From Alphaproteobacteria bacterium (GTDB lineage Bacteria > Pseudomonadota > Alphaproteobacteria > RF32 > CAG-239), in contig JAFUSA010000030.1 of NCBI GenBank assembly GCA_017480745.1, positions 1-50,275 of the forward strand: 50,275 nucleotides of DNA, written 5' to 3'. Shown one piece after another: positions 165-50,275 of the stretch; the first letter of the stretch is position 1, and every line of letters begins with the position of its first letter. A program made the position numbers and the translations under genes. The notes under the pieces are model-generated. The model was not told the origin of the DNA and did no database searches. It worked only from the letters and a program-made list of their open reading frames with translations.

Positions 165-406
165 AGTAAACTTCCTTTCATTTAATTAACTGTTTTTATA
201 CCAAAACAACCGCCCCAATGAGGCGGCTGGAAGTTAATCGCTATTTTAGCACAAATAGTGCAGATTATTCCTTTATATTCACCTGCCTTCCAGCCATAAA
301 GCCGGAAAAATGCGTCATTTACGACGGTGCTAAAAGAGGCGATTAAACCCCAGATGATTCTTACCTCATCTTAACAACATAATACCATAAAAAATTCAAA
401 AGTCAA
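165..406 (-). promoter_or_regulatory. Class A promoter and structured pilin leader RNA (A1)
   Basis: On the minus strand, TTGACT (406-401), a 16-bp spacer and TATTAT (384-379) form the promoter. The leader from about 373 to 165 shows the class A architecture. The outer long-range helix pairs GGCTGGAAG (295-287) with CTTCCAGCC (233-225), 9 bp with no mismatch. The copies at 4.8 and 10.6 kb have GGTCGGAAG with CTTCCGACC at this place, so two base pairs have changed on both sides. The helix encloses a GCAG/CTGC hairpin and a CTATTT/AAATAG hairpin. A CCGCC/GGCGG hairpin followed by a T-rich tract lies before the ribosome binding site. Confidence 0.75.
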
Positions 407-4104: not shown

Positions 4105-4644
4105 TTACTTTTTAAAAATAAAATACCACTCACTAACTGTTCCATCGTTATCTTGTGTTTTGGTGCAAACGTCTACAGCATCATCTAATTTCATAGGAGG
4201 TTGATATACACAGTTATTGCAATTAAATTCGAAACGATTGACAGATACTGTTGACCAATCATATGTTGCCAATTCAATACAAGCTTCTACCGGAATGTTA
4301 TATAATTCAAATTCAAAGTCTGATTGTCCTTGTATATCCATCGTTCCTAAAGGTAAAGTGTAAGTATTGCCTTTTAATTTTTCAACATCCGGAACTAATT
4401 TAGCTTTTTTAATAGCAACATCTTGATCACTTAATTCTATATGCCCTAACTCATTTTTAAAAAATGTACGTATATTACCGGCAGTTATGGTAATTTCTTC
4501 AATCGTTTTATTGATTCTATACTTCATCATGGCTTTACTGTATCCGGCGATTCCGCCAACCGATAAAACTCCTATAATGGCAAGCACGCCTAACATTTCT
4601 ATCATTGAACGACCATTTTGATTTTTTATTTCAAAGTTTCTCAT
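4105..4644 (-). CDS. Type IVb-like pilin, cassette A2
   Basis: This is a 179-residue prepilin. The start is the ATG at 4644 (MRNFEIKNQNGRS), chosen because GGAAAGGAAG lies just upstream and all class A copies start here; an in-frame ATG 18 bases earlier would fall within that binding site. The leader peptide is short, without insertion. The predicted cleavage is NG^RSMIEML, followed by the family hydrophobic helix (GVLAIIGVLSVGGIAGY) and the YRINKTIEEI segment. The C-terminal domain keeps KKAKLVPD, VEACIELATYDWS and LDDAVDVC. The Cys pair is expected to bound the disulfide-linked D-region as in TcpA/PilS pilins. An extra FNCNNC motif is particular to this copy. No pilus assembly gene is nearby. 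Confidence 0.85.
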   Translation of the reverse strand: MRNFEIKNQNGRSMIEMLGVLAIIGVLSVGGIAGYSKAMMKYRINKTIEEITITAGNIRTFFKNELGHIELSDQDVAIKKAKLVPDVEKLKGNTYTLPLGTMDIQGQSDFEFELYNIPVEACIELATYDWSTVSVNRFEFNCNNCVYQPPMKLDDAVDVCTKTQDNDGTVSEWYFIFKK

Positions 4645-4889
4645 AGTAAACTTCCTTTCCAAATTGTTGTTATTACATTAAAAATAACCGCCCATTGAGG
4701 CGGTCGGAAGTTCAGAACTATTACAGATTAAATAGTGTGACATATTCGATATTACCTATTCAGCCACCTTCCGACCAAAGCCGGAAACATCTTTTATGTC
4801 TTATAGACAAACCTGTAAGAGGTTCTGACACCTCAGACGAATTTTACCTCATCTTGATTTTACTATATCACAAAAAAATCAAAAGTCAA
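4645..4889 (-). promoter_or_regulatory. Class A promoter and structured pilin leader RNA (A2)
   Basis: On the minus strand, TTGACT (4889-4884), a 16-base spacer and TATAGT (4867-4862) form the promoter. The outer helix pairs GGTCGGAAG (4776-4768) with CTTCCGACC (4710-4702). Inside are GTGGC/GTCAC and ACTATT/AATAGT hairpins. The end is a CCGCC/GGGCGG hairpin with a T-rich tract ahead of the ribosome binding site. The conserved AGATGAGGTAA and GAGG...CCTC elements occupy the 5' part. The -35 begins one base downstream of the stop codon of the neighbouring gene at 4891, so the cassette is tightly placed. Confidence 0.75.
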
Positions 4890-10531: not shown

Positions 10532-10771
10532 TTGACTTTTAGATTTTTTGTGATAATATAAACACAAGATGAGGTAACTTGTCTGAGGTCCACAAGCCTC
10601 TTTCAAACTCGCTGTAAGAAGCGTTAAATTTCCGGCACTGGTCGGAAGGTTGCGGAATAATATGTATATGAATACGCAACACTGTTTGGTTTGAAATAGT
10701 TTGTGGCTTCCGACCGCCCTTATCGGGCGGTTGTTTTATGTAATAACAACAAAAATGAAAGGAAGTTTACT
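10532..10771 (+). promoter_or_regulatory. Class A promoter and structured pilin leader RNA (A3, reference copy)
   Basis: TTGACT (10532-10537), a 16-base spacer and TAATAT (10554-10559) form the promoter. Elements of the leader in order are: ACAAG/CTTGT hairpin; GAGG/CCTC hairpin; TTCCG (10630-10634), which can pair with CGGAA (10643-10647); and GGTCGGAAG (10640-10648), which can instead pair with CTTCCGACC (10707-10715). The second pairing encloses hairpins GTTGCG/CGCAAC (10649-10654, 10675-10680) and ACTGTTT/AAATAGT (10681-10687, 10694-10700). A terminator-like hairpin ACCGCCC/GGGCGGT (10713-10719, 10725-10731) with TTGTTTT after it shares bases 10713-10715 with the long-range helix. The alternatives are therefore partly exclusive, as in an attenuator. 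Confidence 0.78.
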
Positions 10772-17394: not shown

Positions 17395-17662
17395 TTGACA
17401 TTTATGATTTTCGTGATAGTATAGAAACAGAACTTCGGTTCGGAGCCTTTGCAAGCTCTTATACATGGTGGTGTATTCTATGTACATCATTATAAGGTGT
17501 GATGGTATCTCCGATTGGGTCGGGGAACGTGTGGTAGATGTTCAGGGCTTTTGCCTAAAAATTGCACGGATCATTTCCATGTATATGATTTGCAAATTCT
17601 CCCGACCGCTGTTTGCGGTCAGATTTTTTTTAATAAATAACTTTAACGTAGGAGATAAAATT
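17395..17662 (+). promoter_or_regulatory. Class B promoter and structured pilin leader RNA (B1)
   Basis: TTGACA (17395-17400), a 16-base spacer and TAGTAT (17417-17422) form the promoter. A UUCG tetraloop hairpin (GAAC/GTTC) starts the leader. CTCCGA (17509-17514) can pair with TCGGGG (17520-17525). The overlapping GGTCGGG (17518-17524) can instead pair with CCCGACC (17601-17607). The enclosed first hairpin pairs CGTGTGGT with ATTGCACG, largely through G-U pairs that match Watson-Crick pairs in other copies. The enclosed second hairpin is ATCAT/ATGAT. The leader ends with GACCGC/GCGGTC (17604-17609, 17615-17620) followed by a run of eight T, a convincing intrinsic-terminator shape placed before the AGGAGAT site. 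Confidence 0.78.
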
Positions 17663-20480: not shown

Positions 20481-20531
20481 GCAACCTCTTTCTCTTATGT
20501 ACTGCTTTGTACACCGCAAGAAAGAGGTTGC
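20481..20531 (+). terminator. Long inverted repeat after rpoA, probable 3'-end hairpin
   Basis: GCAACCTCTTTCT (20481-20493) and AGAAAGAGGTTGC (20519-20531) form a perfect 13-bp stem around a 25-base loop, 28 bases after the rpoA stop. It overlaps the first unit of the 145-bp tandem repeat and lacks a U tract, so it may be part of a palindromic repeat rather than a classical terminator. Confidence 0.5.
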
Positions 20532-20774
20532 GGCGTATTAAGCGCATCATACACATTTTTAGGCGTTAACTAATCTTTGTACACGTCGAAAAAATCCTTC
20601 TGCGTATCTATCTCACTAATCGCGTTTTTTGTGGTTTGCTTATGTAATAGTTTGTACACCGCAAGAAAGAGGTTGCGGTGTATTAAGCGCATCATACGCA
20701 TTTTTAGGCGTTAACTAATCTTTGTACATGTCGAAAAGATCATTCTTCGTATCTATCTCACTAATCGCGTTTTT
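20494..20774. repeat. Tandem direct repeat, period 145 bp, two units
   Basis: The unit starting at 20494 recurs at 20639. Matching landmarks at a constant 145-bp offset are CTTATGTA (20494/20639), TTTGTACACCGCAAG (20506/20651) and CTCACTAATCGCG (about 20612/20757). The units are nearly identical with scattered substitutions. Part of the unit is related to the in-frame insertion in pilin A1 at 30-122. The 318 bp between rpoA and the next gene hold no supported ORF. Confidence 0.85.
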
Positions 20775-21220: not shown

Positions 21221-21487
21221 TTGACTTTTGGATTTTTTGTGGTATTATAGAAACAGAACTTCGGTTCGGAGCTTTCAACAGCTCTTATTAAGCACGGTAT
21301 ATTTTTATATCGTTAGTTTGTGTGAAAATATCTCCAACATGGTTGGGGAGCCACTAATGGATGTTCAGGGCTGGTGTCTAAAGATTAGTGGAATCATTTT
21401 GCTTAATATGATTGTTGAACTCTCCCGACCGCTGTTTAGCGGTCAAATTTTTAATATGTTAACATCTATGATTTAGGAGACAAAGTT
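21221..21487 (+). promoter_or_regulatory. Class B promoter and structured pilin leader RNA (B2, reference copy)
   Basis: TTGACT (21221-21226), a 16-base spacer and TATTAT (21243-21248) form the promoter. Leader elements in order are: GAAC-UUCG-GUUC (21256-21267); GAGC/GCTC (21269-21272, 21281-21284); CTCCAAC (21332-21338) pairing with GTTGGGG (21342-21348), or alternatively GGTTGGGGAG (21341-21350) pairing with CTCTCCCGACC (21420-21430). Enclosed hairpins are CCACTAAT/ATTAGTGG (21351-21358, 21384-21391) and AATCAT/ATGATT (21392-21397, 21408-21413). The terminator-like GACCGCT/AGCGGTC (21427-21433, 21438-21444) plus T5 overlaps the long-range helix by four bases. The GGATGTTCAG and TCTAAAGATT stretches are the most conserved single-stranded parts of class B. 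Confidence 0.8.
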
Positions 21488-22174
21488 ATGAGAAATTTAG
21501 AAATAAAAAACGAAACAGGCCGTTCAATGATAGAGATGTTGGGCGTGCTTGCCATAATCGGCGTGTTATCTGTCGGTGGAATTGCCGGATACAGCAAAGC
21601 CATGATGAAATACCGCATTAACAAAACCATTGAGCAATTATCGCTTGTATCGCAAAATGTGCGCACATTTTATGCTGTGCAAAAGAACTATGCCGGTCTT
21701 GATGATCTTAATGCTGTTGGAAAAAAAATAATCAAAAAAGCCAAACTTGTGCCAGATGAAATGTGGGGAACTTGCAAAGTAGACGGTAAGGAAACTGAGT
21801 GTTTACAAAATGTCTGGGGGACTGACTTTTATACTTATTCATGGAATAAAATATACAATGATGAGAGTAAAGAACAAGAGAAAGATAAAGTTTTTGTTAT
21901 AGGCGTACATAATATTACTCAAGAAGCGTGTATGGAATTGGCTTCTGTGGATTGGAGTGCTGTTTCTTCCGGCATAAAGGCTTTTTATGTAGGACAGAGC
22001 AATTCAGGACCTATTGAAAGTACTGCTGTTGATGGAGATGGGGAAATAAACAATATCGGAGCCATCGCTAATTTGAATGGAGCAAACGTATCAATTCCAA
22101 TGCCTTTAAATATTGCCGCAGATGCATGCGGAAAATGCACAAATGATTGCGGATTTTATGCACTTTTTGAATAA
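21488..22174 (+). CDS. Type IVb-like pilin, cassette B2
   Basis: This 228-residue prepilin has an uninterrupted leader peptide MRNLEIKNETG, then RSMIEML and the family helix. YRINKTIEQLSLVSQNVRTFY and IIKKAKLVPDEMW follow. The variable region carries C-K-V-D-G-K-E-T-E-C and NVWGTDFYTY. The C-terminal part has ITQEACMELASVDWS and ADACGKCTNDCG, so the late Cys region is richer than usual. A 71-base stretch of its N-terminal coding region (21542-21612) is identical to the B3 pilin 4 kb away, in the opposite orientation. The ribosome binding site is TAGGAGACAAAGTT. Confidence 0.87.
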   Translation: MRNLEIKNETGRSMIEMLGVLAIIGVLSVGGIAGYSKAMMKYRINKTIEQLSLVSQNVRTFYAVQKNYAGLDDLNAVGKKIIKKAKLVPDEMWGTCKVDGKETECLQNVWGTDFYTYSWNKIYNDESKEQEKDKVFVIGVHNITQEACMELASVDWSAVSSGIKAFYVGQSNSGPIESTAVDGDGEINNIGAIANLNGANVSIPMPLNIAADACGKCTNDCGFYALFE

Positions 22175-25141: not shown

Positions 25142-25741
25142 CTATTTTACCTTAAAGTAAAATTCAACGTAAATATAATCAACACTGCATTTTGCAACTA
25201 CTTGATCTATGTCGGCGGGTGTCCATAAACCACTTCCTGCATCAGATCCGGAAACACCTACTTTATGAACATCAGCCGTTGTCCAATCGTGGCTTAAAAG
25301 TTCAATACACGCTTCCGGCGGAACGTCTGAAAACGTCAGATAAAAATCCGGCGCATCGTATTCTACACCCATTTGCCCGCCAAATGCATTAACCACGTTT
25401 GTTAAAACACCGTCGGTCAATACCATCATTTCATCAGGGATTAATTTTGCTTTTTGAACTATTTGGGCATAACCATTGGCCCAACCGCCAGCCCACTCAA
25501 TTTCCTTTTGACGACTGTAAAATGTGCGAAAGTTTCCGACAATTAGCGTGATTTGCTCAATGGTTTTGTTGATTTTATATTTCATCATGGCTTTGCTGTA
25601 TCCGGCAATTCCACCGACAGATAACACGCCGATTATGGCAAGCACGCCAAGCATCTCAATCATTGAGCGTCCGCTCTGCGCGTTTTTTGTTATTGCGAGC
25701 GCAGCGTGGCAATCTATATTTTTAATTTCTAATTTTTTCAT
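25142..25741 (-). CDS. Type IVb-like pilin, cassette B3
   Basis: This 199-residue prepilin starts at the ATG at 25741 after TTAGGAGATAAAATA. The leader peptide MKKLEIKN is extended by 13 residues from an in-frame palindromic repeat (25679-25717) before QSG^RSMIEML. The helix and YKINKTIEQITLIVGNFRTFY follow, then VQKAKLIPDEM, VVNAFGGQM and VPPEACIELLSHDWT, with a late Cys (QVVAKC). Its N-terminal coding region shares a 71-base identical tract (25578-25648) with pilin B2. The Cys-rich loop seen in A3/B1/B5 is absent. Confidence 0.86.
   Translation of the reverse strand: MKKLEIKNIDCHAALAITKNAQSGRSMIEMLGVLAIIGVLSVGGIAGYSKAMMKYKINKTIEQITLIVGNFRTFYSRQKEIEWAGGWANGYAQIVQKAKLIPDEMMVLTDGVLTNVVNAFGGQMGVEYDAPDFYLTFSDVPPEACIELLSHDWTTADVHKVGVSGSDAGSGLWTPADIDQVVAKCSVDYIYVEFYFKVK
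25679..25717 (-). repeat. In-frame palindromic repeat inside pilin leader peptide (B3)
   Basis: This 39-bp insertion (13 codons) sits just before the QSGRS codons. It contains ATTGC and GCAAT arms around a GC-rich centre (GAGCGCAGCGTG on the plus strand). The core resembles the widespread bacterial short repeat CATTGCGAGCGNAGCGTGG. Here it is read as IDCHAALAITKNA. Confidence 0.75.
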
Positions 25742-26004
25742 TATTTTATCTCCTAAATTCAGAGGTTAACACATTAAAAATTTGACCGCTAAACAGCGGT
25801 CGGGAGAGTTAGTAAATCATACCGTTTGAACTGATCTCTCTAATCTTTAAGCAAATGCTCTGAACATCCATCAGAGACTCCCCGACCCAATCGGAGATAC
25901 ATCAATATCAAATAATGGTGCTAAGCACCACAAACAGTAAGAGCTTACTAAGGCTCCGAACCGAAGTTCTGTTTACATACTACCATAAAAATAGCAAAAG
26001 TAAA
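25742..26004 (-). promoter_or_regulatory. Class B promoter and structured pilin leader RNA (B3)
   Basis: On the minus strand, TTTACT (26004-25999), a 16-base spacer and TAGTAT (25982-25977) form the promoter. The outer strand GGTCGGGGAG (25887-25878) pairs with CTCCCGACC (25806-25798). The same strand can pair with the CTCCGA just upstream. The first enclosed hairpin pairs TCTCTGAT with ATTAGAGA, while B2 has CCACTAAT with ATTAGTGG, a clear covariation. The leader ends with GACCGCT/AGCGGTC and T5 before AGGAGAT. Confidence 0.78.
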
Positions 26005-28695: not shown

Positions 28696-29373
28696 CTATT
28701 CTAAACCCAAAGTATGTTTTGTAAGACCATCATTTAAATCAACATCAACATAAAAAGTTATTCCGTAGGCATGCATATTATCTATATCTTCACAATATGT
28801 TACGGCATCATCCAAGCTTATAGGAGGTAATAAATATTTTTGTTTCTGAGTACCAAGGTAGATCACATTAATATTAACAGAGCTCCAATCTTGGGTAACC
28901 AGCTCAATACAGGCTTCTGGAGATATAGGGGAATGATACAAAATTTGGAAAGATTTGTCAAATCCATTTGAAGATCCTACTTCTACCCCTGTTCCAAAGG
29001 CATTTACTAATGCTGTTTTATCCTCGTTCCACATTTCATCGGGCACAAGTTTGGCTTTTTTGATAACATTGGTTGATAAGTCGTCATAATTTTTTTGTGA
29101 GCTAAAAAATGTTCTGACATTACCTGCGATGAGGGTTATTTGTTCTATCGTTTTGTTGATGCGATATTTCATCATGGCTTTTGAATATCCGGCGATTCCG
29201 CCAACCGATAACACACCGATTATTGCAAGAACGCCCAACATCTCTATCATTGAACGTCCGCTTTGTGTGGTAGAGCCACACTTATTGTCATGCCTCGATT
29301 CCGCAGGAATCGTCAAGGCATCTTCCGCTTGATTAAAATTAATTTGAAGATTTTTTATCTCAAAGTTTCTCAT
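28696..29373 (-). CDS. Type IVb-like pilin, cassette A4
   Basis: This 225-residue prepilin starts at 29373 after AAAGGAAG. The leader peptide is extended to 39 residues by an in-frame repeat (28 codons, 29266-29349) before QSG^RSMIEML. The rest is standard: family helix, YRINKTIEQITLIAGNVRTFF, VIKKAKLVPDEM, VNAFGTGVEV, SPEACIELVTQDWS and DDAVTYC near the end. The unusually long leader would have to be accepted by the prepilin peptidase, or translation might begin downstream; I see no suitable internal start before the cleavage site. Confidence 0.86.
   Translation of the reverse strand: MRNFEIKNLQINFNQAEDALTIPAESRHDNKCGSTTQSGRSMIEMLGVLAIIGVLSVGGIAGYSKAMMKYRINKTIEQITLIAGNVRTFFSSQKNYDDLSTNVIKKAKLVPDEMWNEDKTALVNAFGTGVEVGSSNGFDKSFQILYHSPISPEACIELVTQDWSSVNINVIYLGTQKQKYLLPPISLDDAVTYCEDIDNMHAYGITFYVDVDLNDGLTKHTLGLE
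29266..29349 (-). repeat. In-frame palindromic repeat module inside pilin leader peptide (A4)
   Basis: This 84-bp insertion contains an imperfect palindrome at 29290-29321 (ATGCCT...AGGCAT with GATTCC/GGAATC inside). It also contains a perfect GTGTGG/CCACAC hairpin at 29265-29281. The module is nearly identical to part of the insertion in the class B pilin B5 at 42277-42360. It is read as LQINFNQAEDALTIPAESRH and further residues. Confidence 0.85.
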
Positions 29374-29619
29374 AGTAAACTTCCTTTCGTATGAATTGTT
29401 GAATTACATTAAAACAATACCGCCCGATAAAGGCGGCCGGAAGTTGAGAACTATTTTGCTTTAAACAGTGTTGCGTATTGACCTGAGTTTATTCCGCAAC
29501 CTTCCAGCCGTAATACTGGAAAATAACGCCCAAAGGAGGCGAAAGCAAAAGAGGTTCTCACACCCCAGACAAGTTACCTTATCTTGCTTTCACTATATCA
29601 CAAAAAAATCAAAAGTCAA
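29374..29619 (-). promoter_or_regulatory. Class A promoter and structured pilin leader RNA (A4)
   Basis: On the minus strand, TTGACT (29619-29614), a 16-base spacer and TATAGT (29597-29592) form the promoter. The outer helix GGCTGGAAG (29509-29501) with CTTCCGGCC (29443-29435) has one G-U pair. The competing upstream helix is TTCCAG (29521-29516) with CTGGAA (29507-29502), where other class A copies have TTCCG with CGGAA; the change is on both sides. Enclosed hairpins are GTTGCG/CGCAAC and ACTGTTT/AAATAGT-like. The end hairpin is CCGCC/GGGCGG with a T-rich tract. Confidence 0.76.
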
Positions 29620-32659: not shown

Positions 32660-32903
32660 TTGACATTTGGGTATTTTGTGATATGATAGACACAAGATAA
32701 GGTCACTTGTCTGGGGTCTGAAAACCTCTTTTACGCACGTCATTAAGACGTTAAAATATTTCCGGCATGGGTCGGAAGGTCACAGAATAGAACTATGGTT
32801 TAATATGCGACACTATTTTGCGTAAGATAGTTTTCAGCTTCCGGCCGCCTATATCGGGCGGTTGTTTTAATGTAATATCAACAAAAATGAAAGGAAGTTT
32901 ACT
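32660..32903 (+). promoter_or_regulatory. Class A promoter and structured pilin leader RNA (A5)
   Basis: TTGACA (32660-32665), a 16-base spacer and TATGAT (32682-32687) form the promoter. The outer helix pairs GGTCGGAAG (32770-32778) with CTTCCGGCC (32838-32846). The enclosed second hairpin is ACTATTT/AGATAGT. The 5' elements AGATAAGGTCACTTGTCT and GGGGT...ACCTC keep pairing ability despite sequence change relative to A3. The leader ends with a CCGCC/GGGCGG hairpin and TTGTTTT. Confidence 0.76.
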
Positions 32904-33572
32904 ATGATAAACCTAAAAATAAAAAATAATGATTCTCTCACCAACAAGTGGCGAGGGAATCAATCCGGCCGTTCAATGATTGAGATGTTAGGAGTTCTTG
33001 CTATAATTGGTGTTCTTTCCGTTGGCGGAATCGCCGGATACAGTAAAGCTATGACAAAGTACAGAGTCAATAAAACCATTGAACAAATAACACTCATTGC
33101 TGGTAATATAAGGACATTTTTCGCCAGTCAAGGAAATTATGCCGGATTAACTTTTGGCGATGATACAGGAATGGCAATAATAAAAAAAGCCAAACTGGTG
33201 CCAGATGAAATGTGGGATAGTGATAAAACATCGCCGCAAAATGTTTGGGGAAGTAATATAAGCATTGATCAAGATTGTAGAAATGAGACCGAGTGTGACA
33301 AAAATTTATATAGAGCTTTTTATTTTGAATATTATGGTATTCCTGAAGAAGCCTGTATTGAACTATTGAGTTATGATTGGTCAACAGTTGGAGTGACTTG
33401 CGTATATACTGATACTGATGCGAAATATGGTGAATCCGTAGCAAAGGTACCGCTGAGTTTACAGACTGCAATTGATTTTTGTGGTAATTTAGATCCAGAG
33501 AGTGGTTATGTGCGCTTTGTATTTGATGTTGACTTTGATTTTATAAGTGATGGTCTGCATATTTACGAATAA
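32904..33572 (+). CDS. Type IVb-like pilin, cassette A5
   Basis: This 222-residue prepilin starts at the ATG at 32904 behind AAAGGAAG. The leader peptide MINLKIKN is extended by 11 codons of palindromic repeat before QSG^RSMIEML. The family helix, YRVNKTIEQITLIAGNIRTFF and IIKKAKLVPDEMW follow. Then come NVWGSNISI, a CRNETEC pair in the variable region, IPEEACIELLSYDWS and TAIDFC. The C-terminus is acidic (VFDVDFDFISDG). Confidence 0.86.
   Translation: MINLKIKNNDSLTNKWRGNQSGRSMIEMLGVLAIIGVLSVGGIAGYSKAMTKYRVNKTIEQITLIAGNIRTFFASQGNYAGLTFGDDTGMAIIKKAKLVPDEMWDSDKTSPQNVWGSNISIDQDCRNETECDKNLYRAFYFEYYGIPEEACIELLSYDWSTVGVTCVYTDTDAKYGESVAKVPLSLQTAIDFCGNLDPESGYVRFVFDVDFDFISDGLHIYE
32928..32960 (+). 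repeat. In-frame palindromic repeat inside pilin leader peptide (A5)
   Basis: An 11-codon insertion. The palindrome at 32931-32961 pairs GATTCTCTCACCA with TGGCGAGGGAATC (13 bp with two non-Watson-Crick positions) around a 5-base loop. Its sequence differs from the repeats in A1, B3 and A4/B5, but its position in the gene is the same. Confidence 0.75.
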
Positions 33573-36031: not shown

Positions 36032-36290
36032 TTTATTTTATCTCCTAAAATTAAAGGTTAAATACTAAAAAACCGCCAAACGGCGGCAGGGGAGTTAACA
36101 AATCATATTTACTCAAACGATCCTTGCAATCTTTAAGCTGAAAGCTCTGAACATTCACTACAAGCTCCCCGACCCAATCGGAGACATTATCATATTTATT
36201 AACGATGCTAAGCACCGAAACGCTAAGAGCTTGTTAAGGCCCCGAACCGAAGTTCTGTTTTCATACTACCATAAAAAATGCAAAAGTCAA
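36032..36290 (-). promoter_or_regulatory. Class B promoter and structured leader RNA of the decayed cassette (B4)
   Basis: On the minus strand, TTGACT (36290-36285), a 16-base spacer and TAGTAT (36268-36263) form the promoter. GGTCGGGGAG (36174-36165) pairs with CTCCCCTGCC (36094-36085) with one mismatch and one wobble. The first enclosed hairpin pairs CTTGTAGT with ATTGCAAG. The second is ATCGT/ATGAT. The leader ends with CCGCC-GTTT-GGCGG and a run of six T. It looks intact although its gene is gone, so it may still be transcribed and terminate there. Confidence 0.76.
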
Positions 36291-41944: not shown

Positions 41945-42201
41945 TTGACTTTTTGATTTTTTATGATATAGTAAGAACAGAACTTCGGTTCAGGGCTTTC
42001 AACGGCTCTTACAAACTTCGATGCTTAGCATCGTTAAAAGATATAATGGTGTCTCCGACTTAGGTTGGGGAGCGCTCTGCGGATGTTCAGGACTATTGTC
42101 TAAAGGTTGAGCGAATCATTTAAGTTTGTATGATTGTTGAACTCCCCTGCCGCCGTTTGGCGGTCTTTTAGTTTTAAAACCTTAATTGTAGGAGATGAAT
42201 T
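41945..42201 (+). promoter_or_regulatory. Class B promoter and structured pilin leader RNA (B5)
   Basis: TTGACT (41945-41950), a 16-base spacer and TATAGT (41967-41972) form the promoter. A GAAC-UUCG-GUUC hairpin starts the leader. CTCCGAC can pair with GTTGGGG locally, or GGTTGGGGAG (42063-42072) with CTCCCCTGCC (42142-42151) at long range. Enclosed hairpins are CGCTC/GAGCG and AATCAT/ATGATT. It ends with CCGCC-GTTT-GGCGG and a T-rich tract before TAGGAGATGAATT. Confidence 0.77.
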
Positions 42202-42975
42202 ATGAAAAAATTAGAAATAAAAAATATAAAGAGTCATCCCTCGCAGAGCCTTGCAAAGGCGAATGCGTCAAGGGATCTTCAAATTAATTTTAATCAAGCG
42301 GAAGATGCCTTGACGATTCCTGCGGAATCGAGGCATGACTATAAGTGTGGTTTTGCCACGCAGTCCGGTCGCTCAATGATTGAGATGCTTGGTGTACTCG
42401 CCATAATCGGCGTTCTCTCTGTCGGTGGTATCGCCGGTTATTCAAAAGCAATGACTAAATATAGAATCAATAAAGCCATTGAGCAAATCACTTTAATTGC
42501 TGGCAATATTCGTTCTTTCTTTGCTCCGCAAGGAAATTATGAGGGATTGTTTTGTTCATGTGGAACTGCTTCCGGTATATGTACGGGACAAGCCGAAGCT
42601 GATGGCTGTCCGATAATTAAAAAAGCCAAACTTGTGCCCGATGAAATGCTAACAGTTAACAATAGTGGACAAATTACAGATATTACCAACTCATTTGGAT
42701 ATGGAATATATATGAATACATACGGATCTTCCGGATTTTCTATTGAGTTTAATATGGAACAAAGTGATGAAGTTTGTATTGAGTTACTTAGTAAAGATTG
42801 GAGTAATACAGGAGTGGCATCCGTAGGACTCGGGTATCCAACATCTGGAGAAAACTTAAACAAAACATCGGTTAATATAGACGATGCCGTTACTTCTTGT
42901 TCTACGGCAATTAGTGCGTGCAAAAACTATGGGGCAACGGGATGTCCTGCTTTAAGATTATATTTTGATAAGTAA
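42202..42975 (+). CDS. Type IVb-like pilin, cassette B5
   Basis: This is the longest pilin in the window, 257 residues, because of a 45-codon in-frame repeat insertion that makes the leader peptide 56 residues long before RSMIEML. The family helix and YRINKAIEQITLIAGNIRSFF follow. A Cys-rich loop (LFCSCGTASGICTGQAEADGC) precedes IIKKAKLVPDEM. ITNSFGYGI, DEVCIELLSKDWS and DDAVTSC plus two further Cys lie near the C-terminus. It starts after TAGGAGATGAATT. Confidence 0.86.
   Translation: MKKLEIKNIKSHPSQSLAKANASRDLQINFNQAEDALTIPAESRHDYKCGFATQSGRSMIEMLGVLAIIGVLSVGGIAGYSKAMTKYRINKAIEQITLIAGNIRSFFAPQGNYEGLFCSCGTASGICTGQAEADGCPIIKKAKLVPDEMLTVNNSGQITDITNSFGYGIYMNTYGSSGFSIEFNMEQSDEVCIELLSKDWSNTGVASVGLGYPTSGENLNKTSVNIDDAVTSCSTAISACKNYGATGCPALRLYFDK
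42226..42360 (+). repeat. Compound in-frame palindromic repeat inside pilin leader peptide (B5)
   Basis: This 135-bp insertion holds three inverted repeats in a row: ATCCCTCGC...GCGTCAAGGGAT (42236-42276, with GCCTT/AAGGC inside), ATGCCT...AGGCAT with GATTCC/GGAATC (42305-42336), and GTGTGG/CCACGC (42345-42361). The second and third, with the DNA between, match the insertion in pilin A4 almost base for base. The frame is kept throughout. Confidence 0.85.
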
Positions 42976-47507: not shown

Positions 47508-50275
47508 ATGAAATATTCAAAGTCGGCCTTAGGTTTATTAACAGCACAATATCGCAGTGTATTGAAAAAATGTTGGTTAATAAACGTAGGGCTTTTTGCG
47601 TTGGGTGCTGTAACAACAGCAAATACGGCGAATGCGGCTGATGTTGTTGCATCTATTGGCGATTTTTCATCGGTAACCGCAGGTACAACTGTAATAGGTA
47701 CTGTTAATTTAGATGCTTATTCAACAACAACTGAGATGCAAAGTTACGTAACAGGCTTAAATTATCAAAATGCCACACAAGTAGGTACATTGATTACAAA
47801 TAATGCAGCCGGCGCTACATATAACAACACAACATCAGGCTTGACCGCCAATACTATTCAAAAAGCTATTGATGAAGTAGCCGGTAATATCAATAGTAAA
47901 TCGTTGACAGTTAATACGTCAACAGGTGTTGCTACAATTACTGATGGTACAGTAACAGCTGATGTTTATACTAAAACTCAGAGTGATAGTATATTTGTTA
48001 ATAAAAATGCCAGTAACGTATTTAGCAATAGCAATACATTTACTGGTGCAGTTACGGCAACCAGTGGTTTGACTGTTTCCGGTGGAACTTTAACGGCAAC
48101 CACCTCTTCGTTGGGTACAGCTACCGTTGCATCTCTTACTTCCAATGGTAATATTTCCGGTACAACTGGTAATTTTTCAAGCACTTTAACGGCAGATTCA
48201 TTATCTGTTACCAATGGTGCTACTGTTGGCGGAAATTTAAGTGTTACCGGCAATCAAACTGTTGGCGGAACATTAACCACAACCGGTATGACCAATGCTA
48301 ATGGCGGTTTAACCACAAGCAATTTGGTATTGAACAGCAATCCTTTGACCGGTGCTGATACCGGAGCTTCTGCTATCACTTCGGGCAGTGCAAATACTGT
48401 TGCTACAACGGCTACTGTTTTGAAGAGTGCTGAATATGCTGATTATACCGGCACAAAAGTAACCGGTTCATCAGCAGCAACTTTGAAAGGTGCTTTGGAT
48501 GCGACCAACACACAGGTTAATACCAATACAACGGCTATAACCAATATCACTGATGGTACAACTTATACAACTGCAATGCAGAATAATGTTAAAGGCACTA
48601 TTAATGCCGCAGCCGGTACAGGTTTGACAGCAAGTGGTGGTGTTCTTTCCGTTAACACAGCAGCAGCGGTTGCCGATGGTAATACAAGTTATGTAACGTC
48701 TGATTTGTTGTATGATCAGGATTACCAAACAGCTTCAGACGTAACATCATCAATTAACAATGCGGCCGGTACAGGTTTGACAGCTACCGCCGGTGTTTTG
48801 AGTGTTAAGACAGCCACATCTGTTACCAATGGCGATACAAATTATGTAACATCAGATTTGTTATATGATCAGGGTTATCAAAATGCTACACAAGTAGGTA
48901 CAGCAATTGCTACTGCTGTAAGTAATGATGTTACCAATCATAAAGTTACTTTGTCTGGAGACGGTGGTACAACAACACAAGAAGTATATGATACTACTGG
49001 GACGGCAAATTATGTAACTGAAAATGCAGCAAATGCTACATATAGCAATACTTCATCAGGTTTGGCTGCTACAACTATTCAAGATGCTATTGATGAACTT
49101 GATACTAATGTAGATACTAATACAGCTAATATCGGTACTTTATCAGGCTTAACCACAACCGCTAATACCAACTTAGTTGCTGCTATTAATGAAGTTGATG
49201 CTAATGCCGATGCTGCTCAAACAGAAATAGACAACGCCGAAACTGCTCTTGGTGTGTTAACAGCAACAGGTACTTATGATAATACTGTTTTAAGCAGCAA
49301 TTTTTATAAGTCTGTTGGAACTCCGGCAACAACATTGGCTGGTTCATTGAATAACTTAGCTTTGAATTTGGCAAATGCTACCGGTAGCAGCATAACAGAT
49401 ACGGGAGCTGTTAATAATAATTATACTATATCCGGTATTGCTTATGGTACTCCGACAACCGCAACTTCTTTGGCACAAGCAATTGGTCAAATGAGCAATA
49501 ATATCGGAGCTGCAATTACAGGCACAACGCGTGCGGCAACTTCTATGAGCACAGTAGCCGGTAATTCGGTTAATGCCAATATTCAAGCTTTGGATACGGC
49601 TATTGGCGGTAATGCAACCGGAACTTATGTTTCATCGTCTGCTTCGGTTAATGCAAACATCAGCACTTTGGATAGCACAATCGGTTCTATGGCAGGATTT
49701 GCCTCCAATCATTATGCAACAAATACGTCAAGTGTGGCAGCTAATTTGAGCGCTTTGGATGGTCAAGTTTATAATAACACAACTAAAAACGGCACTCAAG
49801 ATACCGGTATCGGCAATGTTGCCAGTGCTTTGGGTGTAACCTATAATGCTTCAACCGGTGCAGTAGGCTCTACTGATTATAGTTCAAGCAACTATGTAAC
49901 AGATGGTACATCGGCTGTTGTTGCTATTGGTGCTTTGGATACTGCATTGAAAAATGTAGAAACCAATCAGGTTAAATTAGGTGCTGACAATGTGTTTACG
50001 GGCGAGAATACTTTCAAAAATACGAATGGTATTCACATCCAAACTACCGGCGGCGGTAATGATACACAATTGACAGCAACTGACAACGGTTTAACGGTTA
50101 ACAGAGCAGTTGAAGCTACAGGCTTTAAAATTAGCGGAAATGCAAACAATGTAACTTCTATTGATACAACTGGTGCGGCAGTTGCTGCAGCTGCGGCTAA
50201 TGCCAATGTAATGGCCACCGGTGCCACTGTTTATAATGGTGCTGAAAATGCTAAATTTACCGGCACATTAGTTAA
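47508..50275 (+). CDS. Giant Thr/Ala/Asn-rich secreted adhesin-like protein (runs off window)
   Basis: The reading frame is open from the ATG at 47508 to the window end, 922 codons, with no stop. The N-terminus is an extended signal-like region (MKYSKSALGLLTAQYRSVLK, then a hydrophobic stretch ending TANTANA before ADVV), about 44 residues. The rest is low in charged residues and very rich in Thr, Ala, Asn, Gly and Ser; I see no Cys after the signal region. Internal repeats include SGLTANTIQKAIDEV / SGLAATTIQDAIDEL, and VADGNTSYVTSDLLYDQDYQ / VTNGDTNYVTSDLLYDQGYQ, and AAGTGLTASGGVLSV / AAGTGLTATAGVLSV. Such patterns are typical of trimeric or fibre-like surface proteins (autotransporter passenger, phage-fibre-like). 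The membrane anchor, if present, lies beyond the window. Confidence 0.8.
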   Translation, partial: MKYSKSALGLLTAQYRSVLKKCWLINVGLFALGAVTTANTANAADVVASIGDFSSVTAGTTVIGTVNLDAYSTTTEMQSYVTGLNYQNATQVGTLITNNAAGATYNNTTSGLTANTIQKAIDEVAGNINSKSLTVNTSTGVATITDGTVTADVYTKTQSDSIFVNKNASNVFSNSNTFTGAVTATSGLTVSGGTLTATTSSLGTATVASLTSNGNISGTTGNFSSTLTADSLSVTNGATVGGNLSVTGNQTVGGTLTTTGMTNANGGLTTSNLVLNSNPLTGADTGASAITSGSANTVATTATVLKSAEYADYTGTKVTGSSAATLKGALDATNTQVNTNTTAITNITDGTTYTTAMQNNVKGTINAAAGTGLTASGGVLSVNTAAAVADGNTSYVTSDLLYDQDYQTASDVTSSINNAAGTGLTATAGVLSVKTATSVTNGDTNYVTSDLLYDQGYQNATQVGTAIATAVSNDVTNHKVTLSGDGGTTTQEVYDTTGTANYVTENAANATYSNTSSGLAATTIQDAIDELDTNVDTNTANIGTLSGLTTTANTNLVAAINEVDANADAAQTEIDNAETALGVLTATGTYDNTVLSSNFYKSVGTPATTLAGSLNNLALNLANATGSSITDTGAVNNNYTISGIAYGTPTTATSLAQAIGQMSNNIGAAITGTTRAATSMSTVAGNSVNANIQALDTAIGGNATGTYVSSSASVNANISTLDSTIGSMAGFASNHYATNTSSVAANLSALDGQVYNNTTKNGTQDTGIGNVASALGVTYNASTGAVGSTDYSSSNYVTDGTSAVVAIGALDTALKNVETNQVKLGADNVFTGENTFKNTNGIHIQTTGGGNDTQLTATDNGLTVNRAVEATGFKISGNANNVTSIDTTGAAVAAAAANANVMATGATVYNGAENAKFTGTLV

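What the first reader, a model, noticed from the sequence alone, without database searches (positions are those of the whole stretch)
21221..21487. A structured leader RNA shared by ten dispersed pilin cassettes, in two covarying classes
Ten promoter-plus-leader units (five class A, five class B) precede pilin genes. Within a class and between classes the primary sequence differs, but the same helices can be drawn. The first enclosed hairpin in class B is CCACTAAT/ATTAGTGG (B2), TCTCTGAT/ATTAGAGA (B3), CGTGTGGT/ATTGCACG (B1) and CTTGTAGT/ATTGCAAG (B4). The long-range helix in class A is GGTCGGAAG/CTTCCGACC (A2, A3) or GGCTGGAAG/CTTCCAGCC (A1). The inner stem around the conserved GATGTTCAG also covaries (GGGC/GCC, GAGC/GCTT, GGAC/GTCT). 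Paired changes of this kind are strong evidence of a functional RNA. I do not recognise the motif as a named riboswitch class.
Basis: partly seen in the sequence, partly recalled or inferred. Interest (0 to 1): 0.93.

Follow-up and report, generated by a model that had tools for sequence, protein, structure and literature searches.

The report
Pseudoknotted RNA switch before pilin genes
In a bacterium that is likely from animal guts, at least 184 places in one small genome, most of them just before pilin genes, encode the same predicted folded RNA of about 200 letters, which is likely related to a catalogued 'small RNA' and is predicted to decide whether the gene's message is finished or cut short.

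Summary
All ten leaders exist: eight precede intact pilin genes, one a pilin cut by the window edge, B4 none. The 1.6 Mb genome holds at least 184 leaders; 143 of 150 listed pilins have one. Both classes share one architecture, matched in 105 of 126 family genomes and 35 of 385 sampled across the class, also before other, mostly surface-type, genes. Most leaders examined end in an intrinsic terminator overlapping a conserved competing helix: predicted to be a transcription attenuator with unknown signal.

No Rfam family reaches its cut-off at a leader, but RF02221 (sRNA-Xcc1) matches the 3' half below cut-off in three class A leaders of this genome and six of 19 distant loci. In 23 of 30 RF02221 loci I found the missing 5' domain with both pseudoknots, and in 19 of 30 a second copy of those partners downstream. 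RF02221 is probably the 3' half of a cis-acting switch with two output types. My full-length model does not find RF02221 loci, so I call the leader a relative, not a member.

The parts
21221..21248 (+). B2 promoter-like site: TTGACT (21221-21226), 16 nt, TATTAT (21243-21248)
   Evidence: Read; a loose pattern of this kind lies before 42 of 43 class B and 18 of 18 class A leaders examined (no shuffle control was run in this AT-rich DNA).
21256..21267 (+). B2 5' hairpin P0, GAAC-UUCG-GUUC
   Evidence: helix 1, 100% paired.
21269..21284 (+). B2 hairpin P1 (GAGC/GCUC); its loop 21274-21280 (UUCAACA) is the 5' strand of pseudoknot PK1
   Evidence: helices 2 and 3 (PK1 99.0% paired, 5 of 7 pairs change on both sides).
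21287..21294 (+). B2 5' strand of pseudoknot PK2 (AUUAAGCA), different in all 43 copies compared
   Evidence: helix 4 (98.8% paired, 8 of 8 pairs change on both sides); 43 distinct strands in 43 leaders.
21295..21312 (+). B2 hairpin P3
   Evidence: helix 5, 96.3% paired.
21331..21349 (+). B2 hairpin P4 (UCUCCAAC/GUUGGGGA), competitor of P4'
   Evidence: helix 6 (98.5%).
21341..21430 (+). B2 long-range helix P4' (21341-21350 with 21420-21430), predicted antiterminator and closing helix of the core
   Evidence: helix 6, 98.3% paired but no doubly changed pair; class A counterpart 100% paired with two doubly changed pairs of nine.
21351..21391 (+). B2 P5/P5b domain with conserved GGAUGUUCAG...CUAAAG internal loop
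   Evidence: helices 7 and 8.
21393..21412 (+). B2 hairpin P6 (AUCAU/AUGAU); loop 21400-21407 is the 3' strand of PK2
   Evidence: helices 4 and 9.
21413..21419 (+). B2 3' strand of PK1 (UGUUGAA)
   Evidence: helix 3.
21427..21452 (+). B2 intrinsic terminator, GACCGCU/AGCGGUC plus U run; its 5' arm overlaps P4' by 4 nt
   Evidence: terminator in 35 of 43 B, 18 of 18 A; about 3% in shuffles; overlap.
21488..22174 (+). Pilin gene after B2, 228 aa
   Evidence: Pfam Bundlin PF05307, 25.2 bits, cut-off 22.3.
17442..17607 (+). B1 leader core
25798..25957 (-). B3 leader core (pilin 25142-25741, -)
36084..36243 (-). B4 leader core, orphan: no pilin frame follows
41992..42152 (+). B5 leader core (pilin 42202-42975)
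10579..10718 (+). A1 leader core
32707..32849 (+). A2 leader core (pilin 32904-33572)
222..357 (-). A3 leader core (pilin cut by the window start)
4699..4840 (-). A4 leader core (pilin ORF 4105-4662, -)
29432..29572 (-). A5 leader core (pilin 28696-29373, -)

Best explanation
The leader is a stretch of about 200 nucleotides with two covarying pseudoknots that most likely acts, as RNA and in cis, as a transcription attenuator of pilin and other surface genes, predicted to stop transcripts by default and to let them through when an unknown signal stabilises its folded core. Shown by sequence: the helices, both pseudoknots, the terminator and its overlap with helix P4'. Inferred: left alone, hairpin P4 holds the shared strand GGUYGGGGAG and the terminator forms (OFF). 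When the core (P5, P6, PK1, PK2) is stabilised, the same strand pairs instead with CUCYCCGACC (P4'), takes 3-4 nucleotides from the terminator arm, and polymerase reads into the gene (ON). What stabilises the core, a metabolite or a protein, is unknown. It is very probably a relative of sRNA-Xcc1 (RF02221), whose Rfam model covers only the 3' half. In RF02221 loci the downstream competitor appears to be a second copy of the two pseudoknot partners in front of the gene, so the same core would there control translation.
For: Covariation. Own-versus-swapped partner test: upstream complement of at least 6 nt for PK1 in B 43/43, A 17/18, family 29/29, class 18/20 (10-18% when swapped); for PK2 41/43, 17/18, 29/29, 17/20 (19-27% swapped). 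Terminator right behind P4': B 35/43, A 18/18, family 23/29, against about 3% in shuffles. The strand shared by P4 and P4' fits its own partners better than swapped ones on both sides, but the margin is small because the strand is conserved: mean run 8.12 against 7.23 and 8.48 against 7.44, permutation p 0.0003 each, 90 leaders. Folding without pseudoknots: terminator probability 0.83-1.00 in ten of ten window leaders, P4 at least 0.78 in nine, P4' 0.00 in ten. Position: 143 of 150 listed pilins have a leader 50-228 nt before the pilin match. Spread: 105/126 family genomes, 35/385 class genomes, own genome included in both. Link to RF02221; in phage Aaphi23 an RF02221-like match ends 46 nt before the anti-repressor gene ant.
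Against: No transcript, ligand or termination data exist here. Energy models ignore the pseudoknots and give P4' no weight even before the terminator is made, so the ON state needs an unproven stabiliser; A4 has P4 at only 0.05. Overlap of P4' with the terminator is only 3-4 nt in the ten window leaders. 8 of 43 B and 6 of 29 family leaders have no terminator by my rule. In class B no P4' pair is doubly changed. The link to RF02221 is not reciprocal: model R3 finds no leader in the 30 RF02221 loci, only one fragment at E 0.052; the three matches listed in this genome stay below the cut-off (10 of 94 candidates scored). 13 of the 19 class-level loci gave no RF02221 match at E 1. Chen et al. 2011 (title seen in reference lists, paper not held) call sRNA-Xcc1 trans-acting.
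Confidence: 0.68

Rival explanations
1. The leader is the binding site of a protein (an antitermination or RNA-binding regulator), not a ligand-sensing riboswitch; the switch is the same but the sensor is a protein.
For: Targets are regulators and surface genes rather than one metabolic pathway, which fits a dedicated protein. The two classes differ in their P5 loops, as if recognised differently.
Against: Matches to this RNA or to RF02221 occur in many families of Pseudomonadota and in phages, so a partner protein would have to be widespread. No partner gene was sought.
Confidence: 0.25
2. The element mainly makes a trans-acting small RNA: terminated leaders, or the 3' core as in sRNA-Xcc1, pair with other mRNAs through the P6 loop and the PK1 strand.
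For: PMC2996969 (passages read): sRNA-Xcc1 is seen as an RNA of about 100 nt on Northern blots and 88 nt by end mapping. RF02221 cores have a second complementary site downstream in 19 of 30 loci.
Against: Partners are cognate and local: swapped loci match in 2.4% (downstream) and 8.9% (upstream) of 583 combinations. The 43 class B leaders carry 43 different PK2 strands, which would give no shared target. In the window's genome no cognate downstream copy is found for class B (p 0.67 and 0.68). Targets elsewhere in the genome were not searched.
Confidence: 0.12
3. The RNA is a constitutive 5' element (message stability or a terminator-resistant leader, as in processive antitermination) with no regulatory switching.
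For: No signal is known. EAR or put-like RNAs (recalled) are also structured and lie at surface or phage operons.
Against: An intrinsic terminator overlapping a conserved competing helix is hard to explain without switching.
Confidence: 0.1
4. The covariation is an artefact of recent cassette duplication within one genome.
For: Many copies are paralogues; mean column identity of the 43 class B leaders is 71%.
Against: Phylogeny-aware test, and the same helices covary in 29 leaders from other genomes of the family.
Confidence: 0.01

Closest known systems
sRNA-Xcc1, Rfam RF02221
   Same: Same order of elements: long-range helix, P5, P6 hairpin, short segment, 3' strand of the long-range helix. 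In 23 of 30 RF02221 loci the upstream 5' domain has the hairpin whose loop pairs with the segment, followed by the strand that pairs with the P6 loop.
   Different: Window leaders do not reach the cut-off; the P5 internal loop differs (GGAUGUUCAG...CUAAAG in class B against AUACAA...GGGGAA in the RF02221 consensus); output is a terminator in the window and, in RF02221 loci, probably the translation start. Rfam types RF02221 as an sRNA gene of 87 positions.
Transcription-attenuating riboswitches (general kind)
   Same: Structured leader, competing hairpins and an intrinsic terminator before the gene.
   Different: No ligand known; no Rfam riboswitch at its cut-off in the window or at the leaders scanned.
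c-di-GMP or cGAMP riboswitches at pilus genes (recalled)
   Same: Structured leader RNAs controlling pili and surface genes.
   Different: No match to them in the Rfam scans; 4 of 33 family genomes lack a GGDEF match yet all four have leaders.
Phage anti-repressor leaders (Aaphi23 ant, Acinetobacter phage 4316 KilA-N gene)
   Same: An RF02221-like match lies just before the gene.
   Different: No feature is annotated under the match in those two records.

Membership tests
sRNA-Xcc1 (RF02221) | Score at or above the curated 53 bits | tested here: not met
   Window: no match at cut-off. Own genome best 34.7 bits, three matches, all at class A leaders (10 of 94 candidates scored). Distant relatives up to 46.3 bits.
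sRNA-Xcc1 (RF02221) | Consensus fold: long-range helix enclosing two hairpins | tested here: met
   for the leader; consensus.
sRNA-Xcc1 (RF02221) | AUACAA...GGGGAA internal loop | tested here: not met
   The conserved loop is GGAUGUUCAG/CUAAAG in class B and GAAUA/AAUA in class A; AUACAA is present in the R3-detected relatives L310, L318 and L322.
sRNA-Xcc1 (RF02221) | Profile of the full leader also finds RF02221 loci | tested here: not met
   R3 on 30 RF02221 loci: one fragment, E 0.052.
sRNA-Xcc1 (RF02221) | Trans action | not testable with these tools
   Needs experiments.
Riboswitch (kind) | Mutually exclusive terminator and antiterminator in the leader | tested here: met
   (sequence evidence only); the folding model gives the antiterminator no weight.
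Riboswitch (kind) | Direct ligand binding | not testable with these tools
   No ligand known.
Known Rfam riboswitch classes | Score at cut-off | tested here: not met
   window, cut-off; 18 loci, to E 5; 19 loci, to E 1.
c-di-GMP riboswitch regulon | Every genome with the RNA has a GGDEF domain | tested here: not met
   G003, G011, G017 and G030 have leaders but no GGDEF match at E 1e-5.

The most novel reading that the evidence does not exclude
RF02221 is not a small RNA family at all but the 3' half of an ancient, widespread double-pseudoknot switch with interchangeable outputs: a terminator in gut Alphaproteobacteria, a copy of its own 5' key around the ribosome-binding site in phage anti-repressor and other RF02221 genes. 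One gut lineage has amplified it to at least 184 copies in 1.6 Mb, with a private PK2 key in each copy compared, which would make it, to my knowledge, the largest switch regulon in a single genome and the master control of a repertoire of at least 150 pilins.
Probability: 0.45. Interest if true: 0.92.

Novelty: new variant of a known kind. Interest (0 to 1): 0.82.

Why it matters
It turns a catalogued 'small RNA' into a candidate cis-acting switch with a fuller structure, defined neighbours and two testable output types. It shows an extreme amplification: at least 184 leaders, about 2% of the genome if each is about 200 nt, most before pilins. It also gives a concrete target for a search: a signal that would be shared by surface genes of uncultured Alphaproteobacteria, phage anti-repressors and the integron-borne symE.

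Tried and rejected
Rejected: (1) c-di-GMP as obligatory ligand. (2) Phage-borne pilin cassettes: 67 pattern matches in viral contigs, none encodes a relative by tblastn. (3) A known Rfam class at cut-off. (4) Plain duplication artefact. (5) A downstream copy of the pseudoknot partners outside RF02221 loci: class B p 0.67 and 0.68 for PK1 and PK2; class A 0.027 and 0.90; family 0.018 and 0.006; class set 0.11 and 0.06. The copy is clear only in RF02221 loci; the family values are low but the differences small (5.69 against 5.31 and 6.14 against 5.71 nt).

Led nowhere or weak: the column called OFF is invalid because the constraint blocked more pairs than meant, and that script picked wrong P4' helices for B4 and B5; one search replaces it. 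The pattern for pilins was too strict; one search replaces it. One search, a first shuffle test of the downstream copy in RF02221 loci, gave only 9 of 30 loci with p below 0.05; the swap tests are stronger. Paper searches, listings seen only: gut Alphaproteobacteria and pilins; riboswitch, leader, pilin; pseudoknot, antirepressor; RF32 and CAG-239; I saw nothing on this element in the titles and abstract starts listed. One search gave one paper with three of its four terms and no antirepressor in it. The library is open-licence PMC only.

Counts and dropped rows: one search uses 88 of 94 R1 rows and 96 of 110 R2 rows. Of the 20 rows dropped, 16 overlap a kept leader of the other class; four I did not resolve (C29:182952, C4:28136, C7:31466, C12:6964). 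score only the best 150 candidates, so the counts are lower bounds. The sequence windows and rules were chosen by me.

Full report
WHAT IS THERE. The window is contig C20 of a 1,598,228-base genome in 34 contigs, 98.9% complete. The nearest named relatives by RpoA, L150-L159 at 82-87% identity, are uncultured Alphaproteobacteria or an uncultured proteobacterium; three of the ten titles name reindeer, yak rumen and roe deer cecum. I recall this group as order RF32 of GTDB, which no call confirmed. The ten leaders lie at the places listed under parts. Each class was aligned with copies from the rest of the genome.

STRUCTURE. Reading the class B alignment of 43 leaders gives ten helices: P0; P1 hairpin; P3; P4; P5; P5b; P6; the terminator; and two pseudoknots. 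PK1 joins the P1 loop to the segment just before the P4' 3' strand; PK2 joins the strand after P1 to the P6 loop. 98.4% of cells pair and 33 of 61 pairs change on both sides. PK2 is the most variable helix and the best supported: 8 of 8 pairs change on both sides, 98.8% paired. All 43 PK2 strands differ; PK1 has 22 versions. The alternative helix P4' is 98.3% paired in class B, without doubly changed pairs there; in class A it is 100% paired with two doubly changed pairs of nine. Class A has the same layout with a different P5 loop; its P3 is poorly aligned (66%). In 34 leaders, 29 of them from other genomes, 92.9% of cells pair; part of PK2 is misaligned there (37.8% in one block of four pairs, 100% in the block of three). 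My phylogeny-aware test (tree by FastTree, substitutions re-placed at random along it, G-test with APC; not R-scape itself) finds 16, 6 and 12 pairs at E below 0.05 in A5, A6 and A7, of which 15, 6 and 11 are in the structure. The one extra pair in A5 (columns 7 and 140) and in A7 (6 and 201) joins the base after the P1 5' arm to a base just before P6, C-G or U-A in 42 of 43 and 33 of 34 rows: a possible tertiary contact.

THE SWITCH. Behind P4' comes a GC hairpin with a U run: 35 of 43 B, 18 of 18 A, 23 of 29 family leaders, against about 3% in shuffles. Its 5' arm overlaps the P4' 3' strand by 3-4 nt in the ten window leaders. The strand GGUYGGGGAG can pair upstream (P4) or downstream (P4'); both partners match their own leader better than swapped ones, by a small margin because the strand is conserved. 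Folding without pseudoknots gives the terminator 0.83-1.00 in ten of ten window leaders, P4 at least 0.78 in nine (A4 0.05), and P4' 0.00 in ten. So OFF is the predicted default and ON needs stabilisation of the core. This step is inference.

HOW MANY AND WHERE. Models R1 (class B) and R2 (class A) give 94 and 110 matches in the genome; after dropping 20 rows, 16 of them overlaps with the other class, 88 and 96 remain. A pilin N-terminus finds 150 matches among 150 scored of 187 candidates; 143 of the 150 have a leader upstream, 50-228 nt before the match. Two of the seven others start at a contig end. Of the 41 leaders without a listed pilin I looked at 36: 20 precede a pilin frame that was not among the 150 (one of them short); others precede a glycosyltransferase gene (L249), small lipoprotein-like proteins (L007, L232) or unknown genes, and some have no clear gene. 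The pilin after B2 matches Pfam Bundlin above cut-off, and the genome has four T2SSE-type ATPase matches.

RELATIVES. R1 matches 105 of 126 family genomes, R3 35 of 385 class genomes in 28 of 277 genera, five of the 35 being of this family, own genome included, and 20 of 37 in a third, overlapping sample. In 29 family loci the genes behind the leader include lipoprotein-like, glycosyltransferase-like, autotransporter-like and BspA-like proteins, and pilins. Pfam confirms the BspA repeats for L131 and a glycosyltransferase for L249 of the own genome, and finds no family for the L007 lipoprotein-like protein; the other names are from reading the sequences. In the class set they include a helix-turn-helix protein (L306, Pfam) and lipoprotein-like proteins.

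LINK TO sRNA-Xcc1. Rfam at cut-off finds nothing at the leaders of the window. With relaxed limits RF02221 hits the 3' half of the leader in six of 19 class-level loci, best E 4.6e-5, weakly in the own-genome class A leader L059 (E 0.23), and in three class A leaders of this genome at E 1.6e-4 to 4.5e-4 (10 of 94 candidates scored). The alignments set RF02221's outer helix on P4' and its hairpins on P5 and P6. RF02221 itself was then sought in 398 genomes of the phylum: 58 match at E 0.001, 39 over cut-off, 0 of 14 control genomes. I examined the 30 loci returned. Upstream, complements of at least 6 nt to the PK1 strand exist in 28 of 30 and to the P6 loop in 26 of 30, against 29% and 18% when swapped; the full geometry, hairpin with PK1 in its loop and then PK2, in 23 of 30, against 8.9% of 583 swapped combinations. 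Downstream a second ordered copy of both partners is found in 19 of 30, against 2.4% swapped; by eye it surrounds a Shine-Dalgarno-like sequence before an ATG, for example in L331, L342, L343 and L354. Only 1 of 30 has a terminator by my rule. Proteins behind them include Bro-N, KilA-N, P22_AR_N and Rha domains (Pfam, one protein each). In phage Aaphi23 the match ends 46 nt before ant, in Acinetobacter phage 4316 37 nt before a KilA-N gene; in Smp131 it lies inside an annotated anti-repressor reading frame, which may be an over-long annotation and otherwise speaks against a leader there. Against the link: R3 does not find the RF02221 loci.

PAPERS. PMC2996969 (passages): sRNA-Xcc1 is 88 nt by end mapping, about 100 nt on blots. 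PMC12444791 (passages): the cassette with symE and sRNA-Xcc1 is the most widespread one in the Xanthomonas integrons studied (13 species), with sRNA-Xcc1 upstream of symE and both in the same direction. PMC12189769 (passages): seven homologues in a Xylella genome, five close together. PMC11701678 (one passage): RF02221 gained two covarying pairs in Rfam 15. None of these passages describes a 5' domain or a leader switch; I did not read the papers whole.

VERDICT. A real, strongly supported, widespread structured leader; probably a cis-acting attenuator; a relative of RF02221 that shows what that family probably is. The signal remains open.

Noticed in passing
window 42202-42360 and pilin N-termini in the loci held: 24 of 79 distinct pilin N-termini carry 50-59 residues before RSMIE, several with recurring segments (for example SGADAPTVLSAVYTDSTPAKNRQADVPQ); one has a 24-nt imperfect inverted repeat at 42266-42315, while 29255-29373 has none. 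It recalls in-frame palindromic inserts of Rickettsia (recalled, not tested).
   Followed up: partly
A5 columns 7 and 140; A7 columns 6 and 201: A lone long-range Watson-Crick pair (C-G or U-A) covaries in two alignments outside the drawn structure.
   Followed up: partly
RF02221 loci, upstream region (for example L336, L342): A hairpin after PK2 is followed by a U run (for example ...GCGGTATTTTTGTGCC), so a second terminator-like site may lie between 5' domain and core (by eye).
   Followed up: no
window 20494-20774: A 136-nt direct repeat, 93% identical, 145 nt apart, between rpoA and the next gene.
   Followed up: no
window 47802-49120: Repeats of 98 and 153 nt.
   Followed up: no
G000 contigs C1, C6, C25, C31: These contigs start within or close to a pilin cassette, so the repeats may break the assembly and the copy number may be higher.
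   Followed up: no
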